DNA of 14,628 bases from Treponema sp. (lineage in GTDB: Bacteria > Spirochaetota > Spirochaetia > Treponematales > Breznakiellaceae). The stretch lies in contig JAIRUO010000128.1 in assembly GCA_031254385.1 (NCBI GenBank), positions 1 through 14,628 on the forward strand, in the 5' to 3' direction. A model generated the notes under the pieces. The model saw only the letters and a list, made by a program, of their open reading frames with translations. It made no database searches and was not told where the DNA came from. The stretch's first letter is position 1. Each line of letters begins with the position of its first letter. Below are positions 327-14,628 of this stretch, in pieces. The translations under genes were made by a program, and so were the position numbers.

Positions 327-1184
327 ATGAAGATTGGAGTTAGTTCGTATTGTTTTCATCGTTTGATGAAGGACGGGGCTTATACTTTTTTTGACGCTAT
401 TGAGTACGCCAAAAAAACAGGGTTCCAGGCTATTGAATTTACCGATGTCGGGCCGGAAGGCAAAACCATTCCAACAGAAGCCGGGACTATTGCGAAGGCC
501 GTAAAAGATGCGGGTCTTGAATTGTGCAATTACGCGGTTCACGCGGATTTTCTTTACGGCTCTGACGGCGATATGAAAAAGGAAATCGACAGGGTAAAAG
601 CATGCCTGGACATAGCAAAGGCCCTGGGTTCACCCCTTATGCGCCATGACGCGACATGGGGCCTTAGAGACAACACCAAATGCCGCACTTGGCGCGAGGC
701 TGTTAAAATTATCGCCCCTGCCATACGCGAAGTTACCGAATACGCTGACTCCTTGGGCATAAAAACCATGACCGAAAACCACGGCTATTTTTTACAAGAT
801 AGTTACAGAATGGAAGAACTGGTATTGGCTGTAAACCACCCGAATTACGGCCTTTTGGTTGACATGGGGAATTTTATGTGCGCTGACGAAACCAGCGTAA
901 ACGCCCTTGCAACAGTCATGCCTTATGCTCTCCATGTTCACGCAAAAGACTTCCTCTACAAGAGCGGCGCGGAGACAAGGCCAGACGATTCTTGGTTCCC
1001 CACCCGTGGCGGAAACCATCTGCGCGGAACCATCCTGGGCCACGGCGTAGTGTCTGTTGGTCAATGTATTGAGTATGTCAAAAAATGTGGCTACTCCGGC
1101 GTTCTGTCCCTGGAATTTGAAGGGTCGGAAGAGCCGTTAGACGCCATACGAAGGGGATGCGAGTATATGAAGGATAGGGAGTAG
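327..1184 (+). CDS. Sugar phosphate isomerase/epimerase, TIM-barrel family
   Basis: A 285-residue protein of normal length for the xylose-isomerase-like TIM-barrel family (AP endonuclease 2 fold), which interconverts or epimerises sugars in the cytoplasm using a bound divalent metal. The expected metal ligands can be seen: Glu150 in TMTENHG, Asp179 in LLVDMGN, His205 in LHVHAKD, and Glu263 or Glu265 in LSLEFEG. The N-terminal strand MKIGVSSYCF is typical. The ATG at 327 follows AGGAG at 315-319 with good spacing. The last three codons (Asp-Arg-Glu) and the TAG stop at 1182-1184 lie inside a G-rich heptad array, so the natural C-terminus may have been replaced by repeat sequence. The substrate is unknown; the GH94 neighbour suggests sugar catabolism. 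The family call is firm, the exact reaction is not. Confidence 0.85.
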   Translation: MKIGVSSYCFHRLMKDGAYTFFDAIEYAKKTGFQAIEFTDVGPEGKTIPTEAGTIAKAVKDAGLELCNYAVHADFLYGSDGDMKKEIDRVKACLDIAKALGSPLMRHDATWGLRDNTKCRTWREAVKIIAPAIREVTEYADSLGIKTMTENHGYFLQDSYRMEELVLAVNHPNYGLLVDMGNFMCADETSVNALATVMPYALHVHAKDFLYKSGAETRPDDSWFPTRGGNHLRGTILGHGVVSVGQCIEYVKKCGYSGVLSLEFEGSEEPLDAIRRGCEYMKDRE

Positions 1185-1210
1185 GGAGTGGGGAATGGGG
1201 AGTAGGGATT
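1172..1210 (+). repeat. G-rich heptad array overlapping the isomerase stop codon
   Basis: Five GGG or longer runs (GGG agta GGG agt GGGG aat GGGG agta GGG) lie on the + strand and fit the G-quadruplex pattern. The array includes the last codons and TAG stop of the isomerase. Bases 1196-1208 (TGGGGAGTAGGGA) are perfectly complementary to 1281-1293, so the transcript can form a 13-bp stem with a 72-base loop. Confidence 0.8.
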
Positions 1211-1265
1211 GTTATTCGAACTATGGGGGTGCAACCCAGTAGTTTCACTATACTTCAAACTACGA

Positions 1266-1302
1266 TCCCCCACTCTCCACTCCCTACTCCCCACTCCCTG
1301 CC
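1266..1302 (-). repeat. C-rich heptad array overlapping the rarA stop codon
   Basis: This is the inverted partner of the array at 1172-1210. On the minus strand the rarA frame ends in Gly-Ser-Gly-Glu and TAG (1284-1286), all within repeat units of the GGGAGTG/GGGAGTA type. The convergent genes therefore meet in a shared inverted heptad structure, which may act as a bidirectional barrier or terminator, although no T-run is present. Confidence 0.8.
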
Positions 1303-3680
1303 TTAACAAGCAAACTTCTCCACTTCCAAAGTATCGGCCCTCTCGTTATACGTTCTTCAAAAAAACTACGCACCGCCCGGAAAGATTCATCGCCAATATG
1401 TTGAAAAATAAACGAGCCCCAGGAACCTTTTTCATCAAACCAGTTATCCAAATCCCTAGCAGTAAGGAGCCGTTCCTCCTCTCGTTCGATGACTTTGGTT
1501 TCAATACAAAAGCCCTGTTCCCTAAAAGCCAGTTCCAATGTTTCTTTGTCCCAAGTCCAGTAAGCAGGTACCGCGAAAAACGCCTCTTCTGCAGCAGCCA
1601 GTTTATCAGCCAGATCCGCCAGAACGCAAGACGCGTTAGCCGCCATGCCATTGGCCTCTGCTCCCTGCTCTCTGTTCTCTGCTCTCTGCTCTCTGCTCCC
1701 TTTTCCCCACTCCCCACTCCCCTCCTTCAAAATTCTAGACAAGCGTTCGCCCATGCGGGGCGGAGACTGGAGTATGACTACTTTTCCGTCCGGTGCTAAA
1801 AGGCGTTTTGCGGAAGCGGCAAATGCGCTGAATAATTCTGCCGGGTTCTTTCCGGTAGATTTGCGCCCAGACTTCCTCCGTAAGTCCAGCTCCCTGACTA
1901 GAATGTGGTCAAAGACAGGACAGTCAAAGGCCGCTTCTGCCTCTTCGGGGGAGGGGAGGGCGTTATCTGCAAAAACTGCTATTAGGGGTTTTTCGGATTC
2001 GTCAAGGGCGGAGGCTTCGGCAAAACGGATTAGGGCGTCCCTTGCGGAAGCCGTGTCTGTCAGCGCGGCGGTCAAGCCTTCGGGGCAGCGGCGCAGGCAC
2101 TCCCAGAGCAAGAGGCCATCGTTGGCAGCGGCTATCAGGATGCGGTCATGGCGGCTGATTTTGTTCTGTTCCAGGATGAGGTCGCGGTCTTGCAGGAGCA
2201 AGGCGCTGCGTCCAGATTCCATGCGCTTAAACCAGCCTTCCCGGCCTTTGGCTGCACTAGACCAGCTTAAAAGTTCGCTGTCCGCCTTAGAGCCGGTTCC
2301 GAAGCTCGCGTCCCCCAGGATAACGGCGGCCTGGATTTCCCGTTTGCGCATAACTTCTTCCCGGATGCGACCTTCGTAACCGACTGCGGATGGAGTGTAA
2401 AAGGTTCTGCCAACCAAGGCTGAGGGCAAATACTGCTGGGCGGCCCAGTGATCCCTGTAGGCGTGGGGGTAAATGTAGCCTTCGCCGTGGCCAAAGCCTT
2501 CTGCGTCACGGCTGGCATCACGGAGATTATTGGGGACTTCCGCGTCTTCTTTTTCAACTTCCTTGATCGCGTCAAAGAAGGCCATTGTGGTATTGGATTT
2601 TGGCGCGGTTGCCAGATAGAGGCAGGCATGGGCAAGGGGGAACCTGCCTTCGGGAAAGCCTATGCGGTCAAAGGCTTCCGCGCAGGCAATGACTACTTCT
2701 AGGGCATGGGGGTCGGCCAGGCCAACGTCCTAGCTGGCAAGGATGATCATGCGCCGGAAAATAAAGGAAGGGTCTTCCCCGGCCTTGACCATTTTTGCAA
2801 GCCAGTACAAGGCAGCATCGGCATCGCTACCCCTGACGCTTTTTATGAAGGCGCTAATAGTGTCAAAATGATAATCCCCATCCCTGTCGTATAACACCGC
2901 CCGTTTCTGAATGCTTTCCTCAGCAGCTTCCATGCTGATGCGAATTTCACTGCCTTCTGGCGGCGGCCATTTTGACTCGACATTATTCGTTTCTATATAA
3001 CTCGTCTCGATAGCCAGTTCCAGCGCATTGAGCAGACTCCTTGCATCTCCGCCAGCTGTTTCCAGAAGGTGTTCAAGGCTCCCTTCTTCAAAGATCACCT
3101 TCCACTTGCCGTAGCCGCGTTCTGTGTCAGCTAAGGTTTTTTCGGCGGCTTTGCGCAGATCGTCCGGTGTTAATGCCTTAAGCTGAAAGATGCGGCTCCG
3201 GCTGACTAAAGCGCGGTTTACTTCAAAAAAAGGGTTTTCTGTGGTAGCGCCGATAAGGATAACCGTGCCGTTTTCTACCCAGGGGAGTAGCGCGTCCTGC
3301 TGGGCCTTGTTCCAGCGGTGGACTTCGTCTACAAAGAGTATGGTTCTTTCGCCGTAGAGCCTTCGCCTTTCATCAGCACGGTCAATGACTTCGCGTATAT
3401 CTTTGACACCGGTTAAGACCGCGTTAAGGCTTTCAAATACGCTGCGTGTGGTATTGGCAATGACCCTTGCCAGGCTCGTCTTGCCCGTTCCCGGCGGGCC
3501 ATAAAAAATAACAGAAGAAAGGCGGTCGGCCTGAATAGCCCGGCGCAAGAGCCGACCCGGGCCGACTATGTGATCTTGGCCTATGACGTCATCCAGAGTC
3601 CTGGGCCTCATGCGATCCGCCAGGGGGCTTTGGTTGGTCGGATCTTCGTTTACCCCCTGAGTTGTAAAAAGATCGCTCAC
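1284..3680 (-). pseudogene. rarA: RarA (MgsA) clamp-loader-like AAA+ ATPase with C-terminal extension, interrupted by in-frame TAG
   Basis: RarA acts at stalled replication forks. The frame starts at GTG 3680 (AGGA upstream) and is 798 codons long without its final stop. Visible AAA+ motifs are Walker A GPPGTGKT (residues 61-68), Walker B ILFVDE (114-119), sensor 1 GATTENP (144-150) and sensor 2 around Arg214 in GDARSLLN. TAG at 2730-2732 stops the protein after 316 residues, in ILAS-stop-DVGLADP. RarA proteins normally read SEDIGLADP here, so one GAG-to-TAG change explains it. The frame then stays open through PHAYRDHWAAQQYLPSALVGR, typical of the RarA C-terminus. A further stretch of about 320 residues has a possible Rossmann/methyltransferase-like core (DRILIAAANDGLLLWECL; PDGKVVILQS). 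RarA/unknown-domain fusions are known in other bacteria. Residues about 654-676 are translated heptad repeat. It lies 22 bases after the lipoprotein gene. A sequencing error at 2730 is possible. Confidence 0.88.
1653..1733 (-). repeat. Heptad repeat array inside the rarA reading frame
   Basis: On the + strand this reads as about six CTCTGCT-type heptads followed by CCCCACT units. On the coding (minus) strand it gives G-run units (GGGG agt GGGG agt GGGG aaaa GGG) and then AGCAGAG units. The translation is a low-complexity stretch containing SGEWGKGSREQRAENREQGA. The frame is preserved on both sides. Confidence 0.85.
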
Positions 3681-5518: not shown

Positions 5519-6325
5519 CTAGTCTAGCATAAAACCCTTTTCAAGTGCAAGATACTGCAACAATATAGGGTACCGAGTTAAGATTTCGCCGTATCTTTCC
5601 AGTTCGTCCAGCTTGAGCCTTACTTCAACCCTGGCCCCCGCGTACCTTACCGCATCTTCCTCAAGGACACTATTTTGGAAAGCCAGATATTCGTTATATA
5701 CGCTTTTGAGTACGGCGTAGAGTCCATAATCCGGAATCTGAACGGCCTGAATATAGCAACTGATATTTTCCAGTTCCGGGAAGGCAGCTTCGATTTCGCT
5801 GATTAGCTCATCATAAGAATTGTAAAGAAGGATAGCCTCCATCTCTTTTTGATCTTCCCCAAAAGTAATCAGTCGGTTGATAATAAAAATTTCCAAACGA
5901 CGCGCAAAATCTTCTTCCAGTTTTATTAAATCATCCTGATCGTTAAGATTGTAGGTTTGCGTCAGATCTGGAAGAGCCTCGGCCTTTACGGAGAATGAAA
6001 AATCCCCGGTAACTTCCCATTGAAAGTCGTTGTTTATTCCGGCAAAAGCAGCATAAACCTTTCCCGAAGGAAGCAAGCCTGAGCTGTTTACCGTATGCTG
6101 CACCTGGCTTACGCTAAATACCTTTATTTGAACATTGGTAGGAATGAGCTTGTACCAGCACCAGCGGAAATCTCCTTCCTTGATAATATTGGCATCCGTT
6201 CCATGAGTCTTGGAACGCATGACCCCGTAAGACCCCGGCGGGACATCTAGTTGAACCCATCCAAAGAAAAACCCTACACCGCCGATTATCAGCAGAAAAA
6301 GCAAAAAAACTAAAAATTTCTTCAT
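5519..6325 (-). CDS. SPFH/band 7-like membrane-anchored protein
   Basis: A 268-residue protein starting at ATG 6325, preceded by GAAGGGA. A TTG start 12 codons upstream has no good ribosome site and would place polar residues before the membrane segment. Residues 4-24 form one transmembrane helix (FLVFLLFLLIIGGVGFFFGWV). The part beginning VPPGSYGVMRSKTHG (29-43), with a following IIKEGDFRWCWYKLIPTN, resembles the start of a band 7/prohibitin-like domain, where 'v.pge.gVv...G....ilepGlh' is usual. The C-terminal half is helical and charged, ending in YPILLQYLALEKGFMLD. SPFH proteins form oligomers that organise membranes or regulate proteases. The similarity is partial. It is first in the minus-strand gene series ahead of the barrel, lipoprotein and rarA. 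Confidence 0.6.
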   Translation of the reverse strand: MKKFLVFLLFLLIIGGVGFFFGWVQLDVPPGSYGVMRSKTHGTDANIIKEGDFRWCWYKLIPTNVQIKVFSVSQVQHTVNSSGLLPSGKVYAAFAGINNDFQWEVTGDFSFSVKAEALPDLTQTYNLNDQDDLIKLEEDFARRLEIFIINRLITFGEDQKEMEAILLYNSYDELISEIEAAFPELENISCYIQAVQIPDYGLYAVLKSVYNEYLAFQNSVLEEDAVRYAGARVEVRLKLDELERYGEILTRYPILLQYLALEKGFMLD

Positions 6326-6393
6326 GATCCCTTCTTTTTTAGTACCTTGAGCTTTTTTCAAAACCCGGTTAGTTTTGAAGAAGCCGACCTATG

Positions 6394-6399
6394 TATAAT
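6394..6399 (+). promoter_or_regulatory. Possible -10 element (TATAAT) in the divergent gap
   Basis: A perfect TATAAT lies 45 bases before the membrane-protein start at 6444. No good -35 is found at the usual distance; TTGAAG at 6375 is only 13 bases away. The opposite strand reads TATACA over the same place and could serve the minus-strand genes. Weak call. Confidence 0.3.
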
Positions 6400-6443
6400 G
6401 ATAAACTATTTTTGGCGGATTTCGCAAGCAATATAAGAGCGGT

Positions 6444-6803
6444 ATGCCCATGAAAAGCATCCGCCAGCTAAAAGGCAAATTTCCTTCTATAATAGTCAAC
6501 CGGCTGGCCATATTTTTCTTCCTGATATGCCTATTGACAGGTTTTTTATATGCCCTGGGAACCATTCAGGGTTTCATGGATGATACCCAATCCCTTCTAT
6601 TAAGAATAGCCGCTATTTTTGGGATTCTGCTTGTAATTTCCTCGGTTCTTGGCTTTTTCATTGATCTTGGTTTTTTACTGGTAAAAAAGAAGCTCCGCTA
6701 CCTGGGATACATGTTTTTCTACTGTTTTCTGGGCATTTTCGGCGGGATAATCGCTTCCGCCTCATATTTTGTCCTGGTTATTTCTGCTGGCAATGTTAGT
6801 TGA
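6444..6803 (+). CDS. Small integral membrane protein, three predicted helices
   Basis: A 119-residue protein with a basic N-terminus and three long hydrophobic stretches, roughly residues 20-42 (starting LAIFFFLICLLTGFLYALGT), 51-80 (with Asp74 inside) and 88-115. A Lys-rich loop KKKLR (81-85) sits between helices 2 and 3 and probably faces the cytoplasm. No recognised family; it could be an accessory subunit or a stand-alone inner-membrane protein. The start may be ATG 6444 or ATG 6450; the AGAGCGG before them is a poor ribosome site. It is transcribed away from the SPFH-like gene. A G-rich heptad array follows twelve bases after the TGA stop. Confidence 0.65.
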   Translation: MPMKSIRQLKGKFPSIIVNRLAIFFFLICLLTGFLYALGTIQGFMDDTQSLLLRIAAIFGILLVISSVLGFFIDLGFLLVKKKLRYLGYMFFYCFLGIFGGIIASASYFVLVISAGNVS

Positions 6804-6815
6804 GTTTTTGAAGAA

Positions 6816-6849
6816 GGATTTAGGGGTTAGGATATAGGATTTAGGGAGG
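6816..6849 (+). repeat. G-rich heptad array after the membrane-protein gene
   Basis: Units of the type GGATTTA / GGGGTTA / GGATATA / GGATTTA / GGGAGGAGG. This is the same family as the array at 274-310 (there on the opposite strand), again placed just 3' of a coding region. Confidence 0.65.
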
Positions 6850-6884
6850 AGGCGCGGGTGGCTCTGCTTTATGCCGGACGGCTA

Positions 6885-6913
6885 TTGACATAAATTTTGG
6901 TATTTTGTAGGAT
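6885..6913 (+). promoter_or_regulatory. Sigma70-type promoter for the hairpin array and tRNA genes
   Basis: TTGACA (6885-6890), a 17-base spacer and TAGGAT (6908-6913). The expected start of transcription, about seven bases downstream, falls at about 6921, the first base of GGGTACAGTAGC, which opens the first repeat module. No coding sequence follows on this strand before the tRNAs. Confidence 0.6.
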
Positions 6914-7042
6914 GGTTTTTGGGTACAGTAGCTTTTATTGGTGCCCAGCCCTGTAAATGTTACTGTAATAGATGCTTTTGTTTGGGCTGCGCCATATTAC
7001 AGTGATTGGAAAACGCGCTCAATATTTCGCGCGCGTTCACTT

Positions 7043-7169
7043 GGCGGGGGCCTGATGAATTTATTGAATTAACGCTGCTTGACGCAGCGCTGTTCTGGGG
7101 CCCTCCGGGCCCCTTAAAGCCGTCGTTGGAAGCGGCGCTGACGCCCATCTAAAGATGGGCTTACATTAT
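7043..7169 (+). repeat. Hairpin module 1 (main part)
   Basis: Contains GCCTGATGAATTTATTGAAT, then hairpins at 7073-7089, 7097-7113 and 7143-7160, plus a weaker GC-rich stem near 7118-7136. Its head (6921-6953) is separated from this part by about 90 extra bases that module 2 lacks. Confidence 0.8.
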
Positions 7170-7321
7170 CGGGTACAGTAGCTTCTTTGGCGCCTGGGGC
7201 CTGATGAATTTATTGAATTAACACCGCTTAACGCGGTGAGCTGACGTGGGCCCCTCTGGGGCCCCTAAAGCCGCCATCGGGAGACGGCGCGTTGGTCTGG
7301 CTAAAGCCAGCCCACTTTTTT
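7170..7321 (+). repeat. Hairpin module 2 (complete, 152 bp)
   Basis: Hairpins at 7222-7238, 7248-7264 and 7294-7313. The last stem (CTGGC-TAAA-GCCAG) is followed by CCCAC and six T at 7316-7321, which could act as a partial intrinsic terminator ahead of the tRNA genes. Confidence 0.8.
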
Positions 7322-7401
7322 CGGGAACAGTTGCCTTTATTAGCGCCTGGGCCTGATGAATTTATTGGAACTAACACCGCTTAACGCGGTGAGTTTTGTT
7401 G
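7322..7401 (+). repeat. Hairpin module 3 (partial)
   Basis: Keeps the head and hairpin 1 (7375-7391) and then stops directly at the first base of tRNA-Thr. The later hairpins are missing. Confidence 0.78.
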
Positions 7402-7475
7402 GCCGCCTTAGCTCAGTTTGGCAGAGCGCTTGACTTGTAATCAGGAGGTCTCCGGTTCGAACCCGGGAGGCGGCT
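7402..7475 (+). tRNA. tRNA-Thr (anticodon TGT)
   Basis: A 74-base cloverleaf. The acceptor arms GCCGCCT and AGGCGGC pair fully, with discriminator T. The D arm is in GCTCAGTTTGGCAGAGC, the anticodon loop is CTTGTAA with anticodon TGT, and the T arm contains GGTTCGAACCC. CCA is not encoded. It is fused head-on to the end of hairpin module 3. Confidence 0.95.
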
Positions 7476-7529
7476 CTAAAGGCGGTTGTTTGATTTAACG
7501 AAATGTCTTAAGCTTTGGTGTCAATATCT

Positions 7530-7611
7530 GGGGAGTTTCCAGAGCGGTCAAATGGGGCAGACTGTAAATCTGTTGGCTCAGCCTTCGAAGGTTCGAATCC
7601 TCCACTCCCCA
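7530..7611 (+). tRNA. tRNA-Tyr (anticodon GTA)
   Basis: An 82-base tRNA with a long variable arm, as expected for bacterial tRNA-Tyr. Acceptor arms are GGGGAGT and ACTCCCC with discriminator A, the anticodon loop is CTGTAAA (anticodon GTA), and the T arm is GGTTCGAATCC. CCA is not encoded. The integrase gene starts 128 bases downstream, so the 3' end of this tRNA is the likely attachment site of the element that follows. Confidence 0.95.
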
Positions 7612-7618
7612 TAGCGTG

Positions 7619-7656
7619 CTAAGTCTATATAATATATAGACTTAGCCGTTTTTTTT
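7619..7656 (+). terminator. Rho-independent terminator of the tRNA operon
   Basis: A perfect 12-bp stem CTAAGTCTATAT / ATATAGACTTAG with loop AAT, then CCG and eight T at 7649-7656. Confidence 0.88.
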
Positions 7657-7701
7657 GAAATCACTACCACTACCATAAAGGCGTGATTTCTCCGAAAAGT
7701 A

Positions 7702-7726
7702 AATTTTGCCCAAAAATTTGCCCAAA
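7702..7726 (+). repeat. Short direct repeats before the integrase gene
   Basis: ATTTTGCCCAAA (7702-7713) and ATTTGCCCAAAA (7715-7726) are near-identical neighbours, 13 bases apart. CACTAC is also doubled near 7663. Short direct repeats beside an integrase can be arm-type or excisionase binding sites; this is inference from position only. Confidence 0.4.
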
Positions 7727-7739
7727 AAAGGAGAATAGC

Positions 7740-8924
7740 ATGCGCCAAGGTTATTATCTACGACAGCGAAAAAACGGCGGAAGTTTCCACATTGTCTTTG
7801 TTGATCCGATTACAGGGAAACAAACACATAGGACTACCGAGACAAATGATGAGAAAAAGGCCAATGCCATAGCCCAGGGCTGGCTGCTCAATGGACTGCC
7901 CGACAAACCAAAAGCTAACAATATCGCCAAACAGACAGCTTTTTGTGATTATCTGCATCAATTCTGGGATTTTGAAACATCCGAGTACTTCCGCGAAGTG
8001 GAAACAATGGGGAAAGAACCCCATGTTGAACATGCCCTTGAGATGCAAAAGGCGGTGAAACGGTATTACCGCCCCTATTTTGGGAATAAACTGTTATGTC
8101 AGATTGACGAGGAATACCTCCAGAAATTTGTCGTATACCTGAAAACGGAGAAAAAACTTGCAGCCTCGACCGTAAATTCCGCCAGAAATGCCGCATTCGT
8201 GGCACTACGCTATGCGAAGCGAAAGAAGATAATCCGGCAGTTTGATTTTGATGCGGTGCTGCGTGCCGGGGGGAAGGCCAAAGAACGGGGCATACTGGAA
8301 AGGGATGAAGTGGAGAAACTGTTCAGCCTGGAGTGGCCCAGCGCCCGTTCCCGCATGGCTGTTCTAATTGCCGCAAATACGGGCATGAGGATGGGGGAAG
8401 TCCGTGCGCTGCGAGTCTACGATATCCACGAAGACCGCATAAGCGTCTGTCATAGTTGGGGAAAAAAAAGTAGGATGAAATCAACGAAAAACCAGGAAAT
8501 ACGGGAAGTCCCGATAATTCAGGCTTTTTATGAAGAAATAATGGCCTATATCAAAGAATCAGGCTTTTACAAATTGGACTGCCTGCTCCTGCCCGGAAAG
8601 AACCCTGAAATCCCGTACAACAACCGGCAGATTGGGAAGGATTTCAATAAGATGCTTGAAGAAATTGGAATAGATGAAAAAGAACGAAAGGAAAGGGGCA
8701 TCGTATACCATTCCTGGAGGCACCTATTGGCGAAGAACCTTGTTCAAAAAGGGGTACCCAAGGCCATAGGGATGAAAATTTTGGGGCAGAAAACTGGCAG
8801 GGTATTCGATAAGTACGCCGACCATGTGGATAAGGAGACTTTCAGACAGATGACGAACGCCATTGAGACTGTATCGAATATTGAAGCCTTAAAGGAGCCT
8901 ATACCTTTTCATAGGGTTGTATAA
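7740..8924 (+). CDS. Tyrosine-type site-specific integrase
   Basis: A 394-residue protein of usual integrase length. The start at ATG 7740 is set by AAGGAG six bases upstream; a GTG at 7683 would add 19 residues with no ribosome site. The N-terminus (RQRKNGGSFHIVFVDPITGK) looks like an arm-binding beta-sheet domain, residues about 90-170 form the SAM-like core-binding domain, and the catalytic domain follows. Visible catalytic residues are Arg217 in TGMRMGE, a Lys in the KSTKNQ turn (~248-250), His324 and Arg327 in HSWRH, and nucleophile Tyr359 in FDKYADH. The usual His of the LGH motif is Gln350 (ILGQK), a mild deviation. It would cut and join attachment sites, most likely at the adjacent tRNA-Tyr. 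Eighteen bases separate it from the orphan gene downstream, so the two may share a transcript. Confidence 0.92.
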   Translation: MRQGYYLRQRKNGGSFHIVFVDPITGKQTHRTTETNDEKKANAIAQGWLLNGLPDKPKANNIAKQTAFCDYLHQFWDFETSEYFREVETMGKEPHVEHALEMQKAVKRYYRPYFGNKLLCQIDEEYLQKFVVYLKTEKKLAASTVNSARNAAFVALRYAKRKKIIRQFDFDAVLRAGGKAKERGILERDEVEKLFSLEWPSARSRMAVLIAANTGMRMGEVRALRVYDIHEDRISVCHSWGKKSRMKSTKNQEIREVPIIQAFYEEIMAYIKESGFYKLDCLLLPGKNPEIPYNNRQIGKDFNKMLEEIGIDEKERKERGIVYHSWRHLLAKNLVQKGVPKAIGMKILGQKTGRVFDKYADHVDKETFRQMTNAIETVSNIEALKEPIPFHRVV

Positions 8925-8942
8925 GATGTTATGATGTAATGT

Positions 8943-10241
8943 ATGATTACACCTGCATATACAGAGTTTTCGCTTCATCCTATAAAGAGCTGTTTTACAC
9001 AAGAAGCTACAGATCCGACTTCATGGATAGATGAATTTGAAAAAAGTGAATATCCATACAATGAAATTATAAGCGTAATAGAATTCTATGAGTTTATTAT
9101 TGCTTGTATAATTAAAGCAATGCCATTCTTAGAGGATAATGAATCTTTGTTGGATAAGGTTAATACTATCTTTAAGGAGAGATACAATACATTTGCTCAA
9201 GAACATTTTAAAGAGGTTAAATTTTACGAATCATTATTAACAATTATCAGATTCATTAATTTACCACCTCAAAATCGGAAATATGGATTATGTGATACTG
9301 TACAAGCAACACAAAATTTTTATAAATATTTGATGATGTATATTGAAATCGTATTTGGTGACACATGCAATGATTATATTTTTATTCATGATGAGTTAAA
9401 GAAATCAAAACGTAAAACTGAAATTAAAAATTTAAATGAATTATTAAATATTTCAAAAGGGATTAAATGCCCGAAATTAAAATATTTTGCAATAAATAAC
9501 TTGTTGGGATTTTTTGAGAGAAAGAAAAAGAATTATAATAATGCAGAGAAGTCTATTATTCAAGCACCTAATTATAACCAATCAAATAATATACAGGACA
9601 ATAGCAATAATAAACTGCTTGATAAAATATTTTCTATATTTTCTCAATATGCATTAAATTTAGGTGAAACAATAAACGAAACAAATAGTGGCTTAAAGCA
9701 TATATATTCAACTATCAGAAATGAATCATATAATTTAGAGACTGTGATCATTGAAGAAGGTGAAAAAACAAGAGAACTTATAATAAACAAAGCGTTTGAA
9801 ATTTCTAATGAAATCATGAATTGCTATTCATCAATACCTCCGGAATACCGAGGAAAATGTGCCGAAAAATTGTGGATGATCGCTAGGCATCCAGAGTTTA
9901 TTGAACCTCTTGGTATCTTAATTCTAAATGGTTTTATAAAGGAAGAACCAAAAAATTATAAATTTGACTATAAGACAAAAAAAGGGTTCGGATATAATAT
10001 TTTAGCATATTGTATTTCTCAGTATGCAGATTTAAGGAAATGGGCCGATTATCCAGGATCAAAAAATAAAAAAAATGATGAGCATGAAAGTTTTTACACT
10101 AAAAGGGTTTATGAACCTTTTAGTATTGCGTTTGATATAAAGAACCTTGAAAACAATATAAGAGATAAAAATATTCCTAAAGAATATTATGAATTCATAG
10201 AAAAGTCAGGGCTGAAGGAGTGTAAAACCTGGAAAATTTGA
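8943..10241 (+). CDS. Orphan AT-rich cargo protein, unknown function
   Basis: A 432-residue protein in which I recognise no domain. It is strongly AT-rich, with many AAA, AAT, TTA and ATA codons, unlike the integrase before it, and so was probably acquired separately. The composition suggests a soluble, mostly helical protein with no signal peptide or membrane helix. An Asn-rich, low-complexity linker (NYNNAEKSIIQAPNYNQSNN, residues about 198-217) divides an N-terminal half from a C-terminal half containing IPPEYRGKCAEKLWMIARHP and a lysine-rich tail. ATG 8943 is the first in-frame start after a stop at 8937 and lacks a clear ribosome site, so translation may be weak or coupled to the integrase. 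Its place beside the integrase is a common site for accessory or defence cargo, but nothing in the sequence proves such a role. Confidence 0.7.
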   Translation: MITPAYTEFSLHPIKSCFTQEATDPTSWIDEFEKSEYPYNEIISVIEFYEFIIACIIKAMPFLEDNESLLDKVNTIFKERYNTFAQEHFKEVKFYESLLTIIRFINLPPQNRKYGLCDTVQATQNFYKYLMMYIEIVFGDTCNDYIFIHDELKKSKRKTEIKNLNELLNISKGIKCPKLKYFAINNLLGFFERKKKNYNNAEKSIIQAPNYNQSNNIQDNSNNKLLDKIFSIFSQYALNLGETINETNSGLKHIYSTIRNESYNLETVIIEEGEKTRELIINKAFEISNEIMNCYSSIPPEYRGKCAEKLWMIARHPEFIEPLGILILNGFIKEEPKNYKFDYKTKKGFGYNILAYCISQYADLRKWADYPGSKNKKNDEHESFYTKRVYEPFSIAFDIKNLENNIRDKNIPKEYYEFIEKSGLKECKTWKI

Positions 10242-11106: not shown

Positions 11107-12035
11107 ATGATCATGTCACAAGAGAAGAAAGAGAAAGAAATAGATATTATCAACCAATTGCTTGATAATATTGATTTCAGGGGCCTAATACAGGACGAAA
11201 TAAAGAAACAGGATGGCATTATCAGGCAGTTAACATTGAGGATGCTCCAGAGAGCCCTTGTGGCAGAAATGGCCGAACACCTGGGTATGAAAAGAACTCC
11301 AGCGAAGGGGACAACAGTGGGAATATCCGAAACGGGTACACGGAAAAGGACGTGTTGCTGTGGCACGAGTACACAAGAATAAAGGTTCCCCGGGACCGGA
11401 ACGGAACTTTTGAGCCCTTGATAATCCCTAAGTACCAGAAGCTCGTGGATCTGTACAACGACCAGATTATCTTAATGTACTCCTTCGGGATGAGTGATCG
11501 GAATATCAAAACCCACCTTGAAAAAATCTATAGGGTCAAAGTGTCGCCTGATCTGGTAAGCCGCGTGACAAATGCGGTGCTGGAGGAGGTGCGGGAGTGG
11601 CAGAACCGGCGGCTGGAAGCTTCATACACGATAGTATATCTGGACGCGCTGAAAGTCAAGGACAGGACGGAAGAGGGGAGCATCACCAAAAACGTATATT
11701 CGGCCCTTGGAGTGAATTTTGAGGGGAAAAAGGAAGTATTGGGGCTGTGGATAGCGGAAAGCGAAGACACGAAGTTCTGGATGGAGGTATTGACCGAGCT
11801 GAAAAACCGTGGGATAAAGGACATACTCATAACCTGCATGGACAGGCTTACCGGATTTCCGGAGGCGGTGCGTTCAGTATACCCAGAAACCCGGGTGCAT
11901 CACTGCATAGTGCACATGGTTCGGAATTCGACTAATTTTGTTTCGGACAAGGACTTAATAAAAGTATGCGCAGATTTGAGAACTATCTATTCGGCTAACG
12001 AGGAGGAAGCGGGGCGCGAGCGTGTTACGTTCTAA
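11107..12035 (+). pseudogene. IS256-family (mutator-type) transposase, frameshifted and 3'-truncated
   Basis: The first frame starts at ATG 11107 (AAGGAG upstream) and encodes the N-terminus, ending in the family-like VAEMAEHLG. It then leaves frame at 11281-11290; the -1 frame continues with YEKNSSEGDNSGNIRNGYTE and on through VPRDRNGTFEPLIIPKYQ and KDILITCMDRLTGFPEA. Loss of one G in CTGGG(G)TAT explains the break. The first two residues of the DDE triad are visible, in IVYLDALKVK and TCMDRLTGF (the usual Gly after Asp is Arg). The match to the family stops at about 12021, after YSANEEEAGRE. The remaining hundred or so residues, including the catalytic Glu, are missing, as are recognisable terminal inverted repeats. 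It is therefore inactive. A programmed -1 slip at A-AAA-G (11289-11294) is possible in principle but pointless with the truncated end. Confidence 0.88.
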
Positions 12036-12082
12036 TGATATTTGCCATTTACATAAAAATCAGACTACCTCCCTGTGAAGTA

Positions 12083-12290
12083 ATTACACTAAGTATAATT
12101 TCCAGACAGGCTCAGGGAAAAACACAAATTTATACTAAGTATAATTCTGTGTTATTGCCCATGGAATGACCCAGAATTATACTTAGTATGATTTCCAGGC
12201 AGGCTCAGGGAAAAACACAAATTTATGTTAAGTATAATTCTGTGTTATTGCCCAGGGAACGACCCAAAATAATGCTTATTATGATTTCCA
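12083..12290. repeat. Five palindromes at 46/47-bp spacing in alternating orientation (93-bp tandem unit)
   Basis: Copies of TATAC-TAA-GTATA or its inverse are centred at about 12091, 12137, 12184, 12230 and 12277, that is 46, 47, 46 and 47 bases apart, with the centre reading TAA, TAA, TTA, TAA, TTA. The 93-base unit starting AGTATAATTTCCAG at 12092 recurs at 12185 and, in part, at 12278. Half-units are inverted relatives of their neighbours (CAGGGAAAAACACA against TGTGTTATTGCCC), so each unit can fold into a long imperfect hairpin. It begins about 60 bases after the transposase is cut off. No coding sequence is present. Confidence 0.85.
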
Positions 12291-13795: not shown

Positions 13796-13921
13796 AAATT
13801 ACCTCCGAGGTAATTTGTAGTTGACTCCGATCAAACAACCCCAGTTATCAAGCCCCCAACAGAATACGTCCGTTTGTCCCTTCACAAGCTTACACAAAAA
13901 TATCCAGCTTTATTAAAAACT
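13796..13921 (+). repeat. 154-bp repeat family, copy 1 (divergent 5' part)
   Basis: Starts with hairpin AAATTACC-TCCGA-GGTAATTT (13796-13816). The middle is divergent, then the conserved tail GTTATCAAGCCCCCAACAGA from 13844 runs to TATTAAAAAC at 13920. The tail is nearly identical to copies 2 and 3. Confidence 0.85.
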
Positions 13922-14182
13922 TTGGCTCTTCAGGAATTATGGTGGAAGGATACCTTATAAAAACAGTAATGAAATATTGGCTAAAAGTGTAAGGTGTGTC
14001 CAAATTTAACGAAAAACGCACAAAATAGCCTCTTTTTGTAATATTTTATGACTTTGCCCCCGTAAAGGGGCCAAAGTTTTATAGGAAGAGGCAAAATTTC
14101 CTACAGAATTTGCCTATAAAGACAGGCCAATATCAGGGTTTCCACGCCGTTTCCACTACAAAGCCTGAAGCCCTAAAACTTT
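13916..14182. mobile_element. Candidate 259-bp small non-autonomous element inserted in the repeat array
   Basis: The distance between copies 1 and 2 is 413 bases instead of 154, an excess of exactly 259. The extra DNA is flanked by AAAACTTT at 13916-13923 and 14175-14182. Just inside are GGCTCTTCAGG (13924-13934) and CCTGAAGCCCT (14164-14174), imperfect inverted ends sharing CTTCAGG. An 8-bp duplication is typical of several IS families, including IS256. It has no coding sequence. The alternative is ordinary repeat divergence, since AAAACTTT is also part of the repeat junction. Confidence 0.45.
14028..14092 (+). other. Large hairpin inside the 259-bp insertion
   Basis: The outer stem is GCCTCTT (14028-14034) with AAGAGGC (14086-14092). 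The inner stem is ACTTTG.CCCC with GGGG.CAAAGT (14051-14077), with one C-C mismatch and loop GTAAA. The inner stem is followed by only four T, so it is a weak terminator at best. A further GGCAAA/TTTGCC inverted repeat lies just beyond. Confidence 0.7.
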
Positions 14183-14332
14183 TAATTTGTATCGTACACT
14201 ACAAAAAATTACCCTTGTGGTAATTTTATCTTAAACCCCAAGCCAAAGCAAACCCTGTTATCAAGCCCCCAACAGAATACGTCCGTTTGTTCCTTCCCAA
14301 GCTTACACAAAAATATCCAGCTTTATTAAAAA
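14179..14332 (+). repeat. 154-bp repeat family, copy 2
   Basis: Hairpin AAAATTACC-CTTGT-GGTAATTTT at 14205-14227, then GTTATCAAGCCCCCAACAGA from 14257 and a tail ending TATTAAAAAC. It is directly followed by copy 3 with an exact 154-base period. Confidence 0.92.
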
Positions 14333-14451
14333 CTTTTAATTTGTATCGTACACTACAAAAAATTACCCTTATGGTAATTTTATCTTAAATCCCAAGCCAA
14401 AGCAAACCCTGTTATCAAGCCCCCAACAGAATACGTCCGTTTGTTCCTTAT
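14333..14451 (+). repeat. 154-bp repeat family, copy 3 (3'-truncated)
   Basis: Nearly identical to copy 2. The hairpin loop is CTTAT instead of CTTGT (14359-14381). Identity ends after GTCCGTTTGTTCCTT at about 14450. Confidence 0.92.
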
Positions 14452-14628
14452 TAAACTCCAACTTCAAACAGACTCAAAAACTAAATAGAAGAAAGATAAT
14501 AGAAGAATAAAGAGTAATGGCAAGATAAAAGGAGTTAACATTGCGGTTTAATTCTATATATTATATATAGATACAAGTTAACTTGGCCGAATTTTGTAAA
14601 CATTTCTTCAAAATATGCATTTAATTCT
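14452..14628. other. Non-coding stretch at the window end
   Basis: No gene of recognisable form is seen. The stretch holds an AT palindrome (14553-14571) and a possible promoter that would serve a gene beyond the window. Confidence 0.5.
14541..14569 (+). promoter_or_regulatory. Possible promoter for a gene beyond the window
   Basis: TTGCGG (14541-14546), a 17-base spacer and TATATA (14564-14569). The -10 lies in an AT palindrome TCTATATAT/ATATATAGA, so the match may be by chance. Confidence 0.3.

What the first reader, a model, noticed from the sequence alone, without database searches (positions are those of the whole stretch)
6921..7401. Tandem hairpin modules with compensatory base changes, directly upstream of tRNA-Thr
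Three copies of a module share conserved single-stranded pieces (GGGTACAGTAGC, CCTGATGAATTTATTG) and hairpins whose stems differ between copies by paired changes. Hairpin 1 differs at two pairs, hairpin 2 at one flipped pair, and hairpin 4 at three pairs with the TAAA loop kept. Six compensated pairs among so few copies argue for selection on RNA (or cruciform) structure. I recognise no known RNA family here.
Basis: partly seen in the sequence, partly recalled or inferred. Interest (0 to 1): 0.78.

Follow-up and report, generated by a model that had tools for sequence, protein, structure and literature searches.

The report
Tandem RNA-hairpin modules before tRNA genes
In DNA that probably comes from a spirochaete, a roughly 150-base block of hairpins is repeated two and a half times between a promoter-like site and two transfer-RNA genes, with changes in the stems that keep the pairing, so it may be an undescribed structured RNA made together with those tRNAs.

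Summary
Two full copies and one truncated copy of a ~150-nt module lie at 6921-7401 and abut tRNA-Thr. Copies 1 and 2 are 92/131 identical over the aligned core. In three stems (20 pairs) all 14 substitutions fall in 7 pairs changed on both sides: 6 stay paired, 1 is broken. Random placement of as many substitutions gave as many compensated pairs with P~1e-4 for the two best-anchored stems and in 1 of 400,000 trials for all three. I read promoter, modules, tRNA-Thr, tRNA-Tyr and terminator as one transcription unit with the modules as its long 5' leader; this is inferred, nothing shows transcription. Rfam has no match at 6921-7401. No homologue turned up in the searches made (viral contigs, phages, plasmids, 20 other genomes), but no spirochaete genome could be reached, so distribution is unknown. 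Folding does not tell the strand (z -5.2 plus, -6.2 minus). A BOX-like interspersed repeat is the main rival.

The parts
6885..6913 (+). sigma-70-type promoter candidate TTGACA-N17-TAGGAT (10 of 12), start expected about 6920-6921
   Evidence: one of 3 plus-strand places with at least 10/12 in the window (5 sites on the minus strand)
6921..7170 (+). module 1 (full, with a ~100-nt insert at about 6946-7041)
6946..7041 (+). insert of module 1: mutually exclusive stems A and C (A uses the conserved 5' end), and stem B crossing C (possible pseudoknot)
   Evidence: duplex energies A -13.9, C -12.7, B -17.0 kcal/mol; prediction only, no comparative support
7171..7322 (+). module 2 (full)
7323..7401 (+). 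module 3 (truncated after hairpin 1; runs up to tRNA-Thr)
7051..7066 (+). conserved CCTGATGAATTTATTG of module 1 (also 7200-7215 and 7352-7367)
7073..7089 (+). hairpin 1 of module 1 (6 bp)
   Evidence: two compensated pairs against module 2
7222..7238 (+). hairpin 1 of module 2 (same sequence at 7375-7391 in module 3, where the scan also calls it terminator-like)
7097..7113 (+). hairpin 2 of module 1 (7 bp)
7248..7264 (+). hairpin 2 of module 2 (7 bp, one flipped pair)
7119..7136 (+). hairpin 3 of module 1 (4 bp; 7270-7288 in module 2), no variation in its pairs
7143..7160 (+). hairpin 4 of module 1 (7 bp, loop TAAA, 4 T in the first 8 bases after it)
7293..7321 (+). hairpin 4 of module 2 with its tail CTTTTTT: intrinsic-terminator-like
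7402..7476 (+). tRNA-Thr (TGT)
7529..7612 (+). tRNA-Tyr (GTA)
7618..7656 (+). terminator candidate of the unit: 13-bp stem then CGTTTTTTTT

Best explanation
The modules are a tandemly duplicated structured RNA that forms the ~480-nt 5' leader (external transcribed spacer) of a tRNA-Thr/tRNA-Tyr transcription unit. Transcription starts at the first base of module 1. Part of it may stop at the terminator-like hairpin that ends module 2, giving a short RNA of two modules; the rest reads through module 3 and both tRNAs to the terminator after tRNA-Tyr, and RNase P, cutting at 7401/7402, releases the leader. The invariant stretches outside the varying stems are the likely contact sites for a protein or another RNA, held in place by hairpins whose sequence may drift as long as they pair. 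Shown: the repeats, the compensated stems and (by ARAGORN and Rfam) the tRNAs. Inferred from consensus matches: promoter and terminators. Inferred only: one transcript, partial termination, processing, action in trans.
For: 6 compensated against 1 broken of 7 changed pairs, 1 of 400,000 random trials. The 26-nt piece GGGCCTGATGAATTTATTGAATTAAC is identical in modules 1 and 2 while the aligned core as a whole is 92/131 identical. A 10/12 promoter-like site, one of 3 plus-strand places of that quality in 14.6 kb, ends 7 nt before module 1. The scan of 6300-7700 finds no other plus-strand promoter-like site. A 13-bp hairpin with a T-rich tail follows tRNA-Tyr. The one-base insertion inside the conserved piece of module 3 argues against coding.
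Against: No expression data. Covariation rests on one comparison of two full copies, with stems chosen after the fact. Folding does not favour the plus strand (z -5.24 plus, -6.22 minus). Promoter- and terminator-like sites are common by chance in this stretch (5 found against 2.1 expected for each kind). A T6-tailed hairpin before module 3, and hairpin 1 of module 3, which the scan also calls terminator-like (tail AGTTTTGTTG), would cut tRNA synthesis if they terminated fully. No homologue was found, and spirochaete genomes were out of reach. As far as I recall, leaders this long are unusual before tRNA operons; in L241 (thr-tyr-gly-thr genes) a TATAAT lies 28 bases before tRNA-Thr (by eye).
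Confidence: 0.43

Rival explanations
1. An interspersed, BOX-like palindromic repeat (a small mobile or parasitic element) that landed in the tRNA leader and was duplicated in tandem; its hairpins serve its own spread or are a by-product, and the tRNAs are bystanders.
For: Modular hairpins, tandem copies, a truncated copy and an insert in module 1 would fit such repeats; the authors of PMC3049150 think pneumococcal BOX, RUP and SPRITE repeats parasitic, with extensive secondary structure, and show some BOX elements expressed (abstract). The contig carries an integrase, an IS256-type transposase and other repeats.
Against: No fourth copy in 14.6 kb, a small sample; the first copy starts just where the promoter-like site would start RNA.
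Confidence: 0.27
2. A cis-acting tandem attenuator: each module senses something (a tRNA, a metabolite or a protein) and hairpin 4 is its terminator, so the array sets how much tRNA-Thr and tRNA-Tyr is made.
For: Hairpin 4 of module 2 has a stem of -10.7 kcal/mol and 6 T in the first 8 tail bases; hairpin 1 of module 3, just before tRNA-Thr, is also called terminator-like; the insert of module 1 has mutually exclusive stems involving the conserved 5' end.
Against: Hairpin 4 of module 1 has a poor T tract and module 3 lacks hairpin 4; I saw no alternative (antiterminator) fold common to the copies, though I made no systematic search for one; no T-box or other riboswitch match in the window at E<=1.
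Confidence: 0.2
3. No function: a tandem duplication of palindromes whose arms are kept matched by template-switch (quasi-palindrome) mutation, which changes both arms at once.
For: Such mutation (recalled, not looked up) gives double changes without selection; my test rejects only independent substitution.
Against: The 26-nt piece outside the varying stems is kept without change between modules 1 and 2, which palindrome correction does not explain; promoter coincidence.
Confidence: 0.08
4. An array of integron attC-like recombination sites.
For: Tandem hairpins; some Treponema carry integrons (PMC3607928, passages).
Against: The integrase in the window scores 37.5 bits against a cut-off of 265 for the integron integrase model; the only start-to-stop ORF of 60 aa or more over the modules is a 62-aa one on the minus strand, without a homologue found; the paper's hypothesis places the integron gain after the split from the termite-gut species.
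Confidence: 0.02

Closest known systems
3'ETS of the E. coli glyW-cysT-leuZ tRNA transcript (sRNA sponge)
   Same: Spacer RNA made with tRNAs and cut from the precursor, with a function in trans (PMC6191717, passages)
   Different: That one is a 3' spacer; this would be a repeated 5' leader. No sequence comparison was made
rtT RNA / tandem repeats of the E. coli tyrT locus (recalled; the search returned no paper)
   Same: Tandem repeats within a tRNA transcription unit
   Different: As recalled, it lies after tRNA-Tyr and includes a piece of the tRNA; the modules here are no more like tRNA-Thr or tRNA-Tyr than shuffles, and no Rfam family matches 6921-7401 (that rtT is among the families is recalled)
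Pneumococcal BOX elements
   Same: Structured repeats that can be co-transcribed with neighbours (PMC3049150, abstract)
   Different: Interspersed over the chromosome; copy number could not be tested here
STAXI motif (RF01728)
   Different: A pseudoknot unit listed for Enterobacteriales; no Rfam match here
Termite-flg and Termite-leu RNAs (RF01729, RF01730)
   Same: Candidate structured RNAs known from termite hindgut only (PMC2864571, passages)
   Different: No match at E<=1

Membership tests
Any Rfam 15 family | covariance-model score at or above the gathering score | tested here: not met
   within 6921-7401 no match even at E<=1; the tRNAs at 7402 and 7530 match
tRNA external transcribed spacer RNA | transcribed together with a tRNA and cut from it | not testable with these tools
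   only promoter and terminator consensus matches
Transcription attenuator / riboswitch leader | terminator with U tract in the leader | tested here: met
   hairpin at 7293-7314 with tail CTTTTTT; a consensus match among 5 found against 2.1 expected, not a measured termination
Transcription attenuator / riboswitch leader | conserved alternative (antiterminator) fold | tested here: inconclusive
   mutually exclusive stems only in the insert of module 1; no systematic search
Interspersed repeat (BOX-like) | many copies over the genome | tested here: inconclusive
   none elsewhere in the 14.6-kb window; no host genome held
Integron attC array | integron integrase nearby | tested here: not met
   37.5 bits against a cut-off of 265
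Hammerhead ribozyme (CUGAUGA resemblance, recalled) | match to Rfam hammerhead models | tested here: not met
   no match at 6921-7401 at E<=1

The most novel reading that the evidence does not exclude
A tandem, multi-module RNA sensor with its own terminators controls the output of a tRNA operon in a spirochaete, i.e. tRNA genes themselves are the regulated output of a repeated riboswitch-like leader.
Probability: 0.12. Interest if true: 0.8.

Novelty: new variant of a known kind. Interest (0 to 1): 0.5.

Why it matters
From general knowledge, not from a call: few structured RNAs have been described in spirochaetes, and tRNA operons are usually taken to have short, passive leaders. A repeated, structure-keeping leader before tRNA genes would be either a new family of tRNA-borne small RNAs or a new way of setting tRNA supply. 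If it is instead a mobile repeat, it is another BOX-like element, of modest interest.

Tried and rejected
Coding: the conserved 16-mer reads PDEFI in one frame, and that frame is open for at least 100 codons at 168 of the 238 places where the 16-mer occurs in the 237 loci, so those matches are mostly of the coding kind and unrelated to the module. In the window itself module 3 has a one-base insertion in the piece, and the 62-aa ORF across module 1 found no candidate sharing three 5-residue words (a weak test for so short a query). Rejected.

Pairing of the two conserved pieces with each other (one long hairpin): -13.0, -10.6 and -7.2 kcal/mol in modules 1, 2, 3, reached by 3%, 15% and 45% of shuffles and by 3%, 7% and 42% of random window stretches. 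Not established. Decayed tRNA copies inside the modules (hairpin 3 resembles the tRNA-Thr acceptor ends): local alignment scores reached by at least 12.8% of shuffles in each of the 6 comparisons. Rejected.

Strand from folding: both strands fold better than shuffles, the plus strand with DNA parameters too; no decision. Single modules have lower energy on the plus strand, but without a shuffle control there.

In the part of the blastn output shown no alignment goes beyond 33 nt. Viral contigs with further patterns:: 0; 1, in a frame open for 494 codons of L238, so taken as chance; 0 each. Integrase-led search of viral contigs: none. A neighbouring protein against plasmids: none. Phages and plasmids by distant blastn: 2 and 1 records, 24-29-nt matches at E>=2. 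tRNA-Thr/tRNA-Tyr pair in viral contigs: 2 contigs, L240 and L241, no module by model R1 (two weak matches there, E 0.23 and 1.6, both in L034). R1 on 20 genomes reached through chance loci: 0 of 20, and the tool warns that this shows nothing without a positive genome. Literature: (8 searches); I saw nothing in the listings that describes this array; I saw passages of four papers and the abstract and outline of a fifth.

Full report
Where it lies. No host genome is held for this 14,628-base contig; a metagenome record seems likely but is not stated. tRNA-Thr (7402-7476) and tRNA-Tyr (7529-7612) are followed by an integrase gene (7683-8924), so a mobile element may sit downstream of the pair; no second copy of the tRNA-Tyr end lies in the window.

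The repeats. Module 1 (6921-7170), module 2 (7171-7322) and a truncated module 3 (7323-7401) share the start GGGWACAGTWGC and CCTGATGAATTTATTG. Modules 1 and 2 align without large gaps from the conserved piece to hairpin 4, 92 of 131 aligned columns identical, so hairpins 1, 2 and 4 are compared by position. A covariance model built from the copies finds those three, by construction, and nothing else convincing in the window.

The compensation. On 20 pairs of hairpins 1, 2 and 4, modules 1 and 2 differ at 14 positions, which form exactly 7 pairs; 6 remain pairs (H1: G-C/A-T, T-A/C-G; H2: G-C/C-G; H4: C-G/T-A, A-T/G-C, T-A/G-C) and 1 becomes T x C. Placing the same number of substitutions at random gave at least as many compensated pairs with P~0.006 (H1), 0.034 (H2), 0.027 (H4), 1.1e-4 (H1+H2) and in 1 of 400,000 trials (all three). 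Column shuffles reach the covariation score in 3 of 500 and the number of further pair types in 36 of 500; slid structures give 0 or 1 double change against 6. Limits: the stems were chosen after the fact, only two full copies exist, hairpin 3 adds nothing, and template-switch mutation of palindromes can change both arms at once.

The transcription unit. The scan of 6300-7700 gives 5 promoter-like sites against 2.1 expected, so several are noise; the only plus-strand one, TTGACA-17-TAGGAT, ends 7 nt before module 1. In the whole window 3 plus-strand places reach 10/12, and 5 sites do on the minus strand. Terminator-like sites: 5 against 2.1 expected. The one after tRNA-Tyr has a 13-bp stem and 6 T in the first 8 tail bases; the one ending module 2 has a stem of -10.7 kcal/mol and a T6 tail; hairpin 4 of module 1 is as stable but its tail has 4 T in 8; hairpin 1 of module 3, ten bases before tRNA-Thr, is also called terminator-like. 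I infer one unit in which the modules are the leader. No plus-strand promoter-like site was found between the modules and the tRNAs, but promoters of another kind would be missed. The two terminator-like sites inside the leader are a difficulty for simple read-through and the reason why the attenuator stays a serious rival.

Strand and kind of nucleic acid. The region folds far better than shuffles on the plus strand (z -5.24), on the minus strand (z -6.22) and with DNA parameters (z -4.38). The compensated pairs are all Watson-Crick. RNA on the plus strand is therefore inferred from promoter, terminators and tRNA direction, not from folding.

Module 1 insert. At about 6946-7041, with the conserved start, there are possible stems A (TACAGTAGC of the start with GTTACTGTA), B (GGTGCCCAGCCC with GGGCTGCGCC) and C (TTACTGTAATA with TATTACAGTGA); A excludes C, and B crosses C, so a switch or a pseudoknot is possible. 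The insert has no counterpart in modules 2 and 3 and no comparative support.

Relatives. Two viral contigs with the same tRNA pair have no module. This absence says little.

Judgement. I put 0.43 on a co-transcribed leader RNA that is processed and acts through its conserved pieces, 0.27 on a BOX-like repeat, 0.20 on a cis attenuator, 0.08 on a by-product of palindrome mutation and 0.02 on attC-like sites.

Noticed in passing
window 2586-2729 (between ORFs 1284-2585 and 2730-3680, minus strand): The RarA/MgsA-type AAA ATPase gene (NF009881: profile 3-303 in one ORF, 353-618 in the other) is split between two ORFs, by a change in the gene or an assembly error.
   Followed up: partly
window 11107-12035: IS256-type transposase spread over two overlapping ORFs in different frames, the second ending before the end of the profile.
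   Followed up: no
window 12082-12259: An 85-nt unit present twice (92%), with 30-nt inverted repeats, just after the transposase ORFs.
   Followed up: no
window 13833-14490: Three copies of a ~90-nt unit (95% and 65% to the first), and a 121-nt repeat present twice, 98% alike, spaced 154 nt; I assigned no gene there.
   Followed up: no
window 1177-1299: Long imperfect inverted repeat of GGGAGTGGGGA-type sequence, arms 83-92% complementary, which gives sub-threshold microRNA matches in Rfam.
   Followed up: no
window 8943-10241: A 432-aa protein next to the integrase with no match in Pfam, PHROGs or PADLOC at E<=0.001.
   Followed up: no
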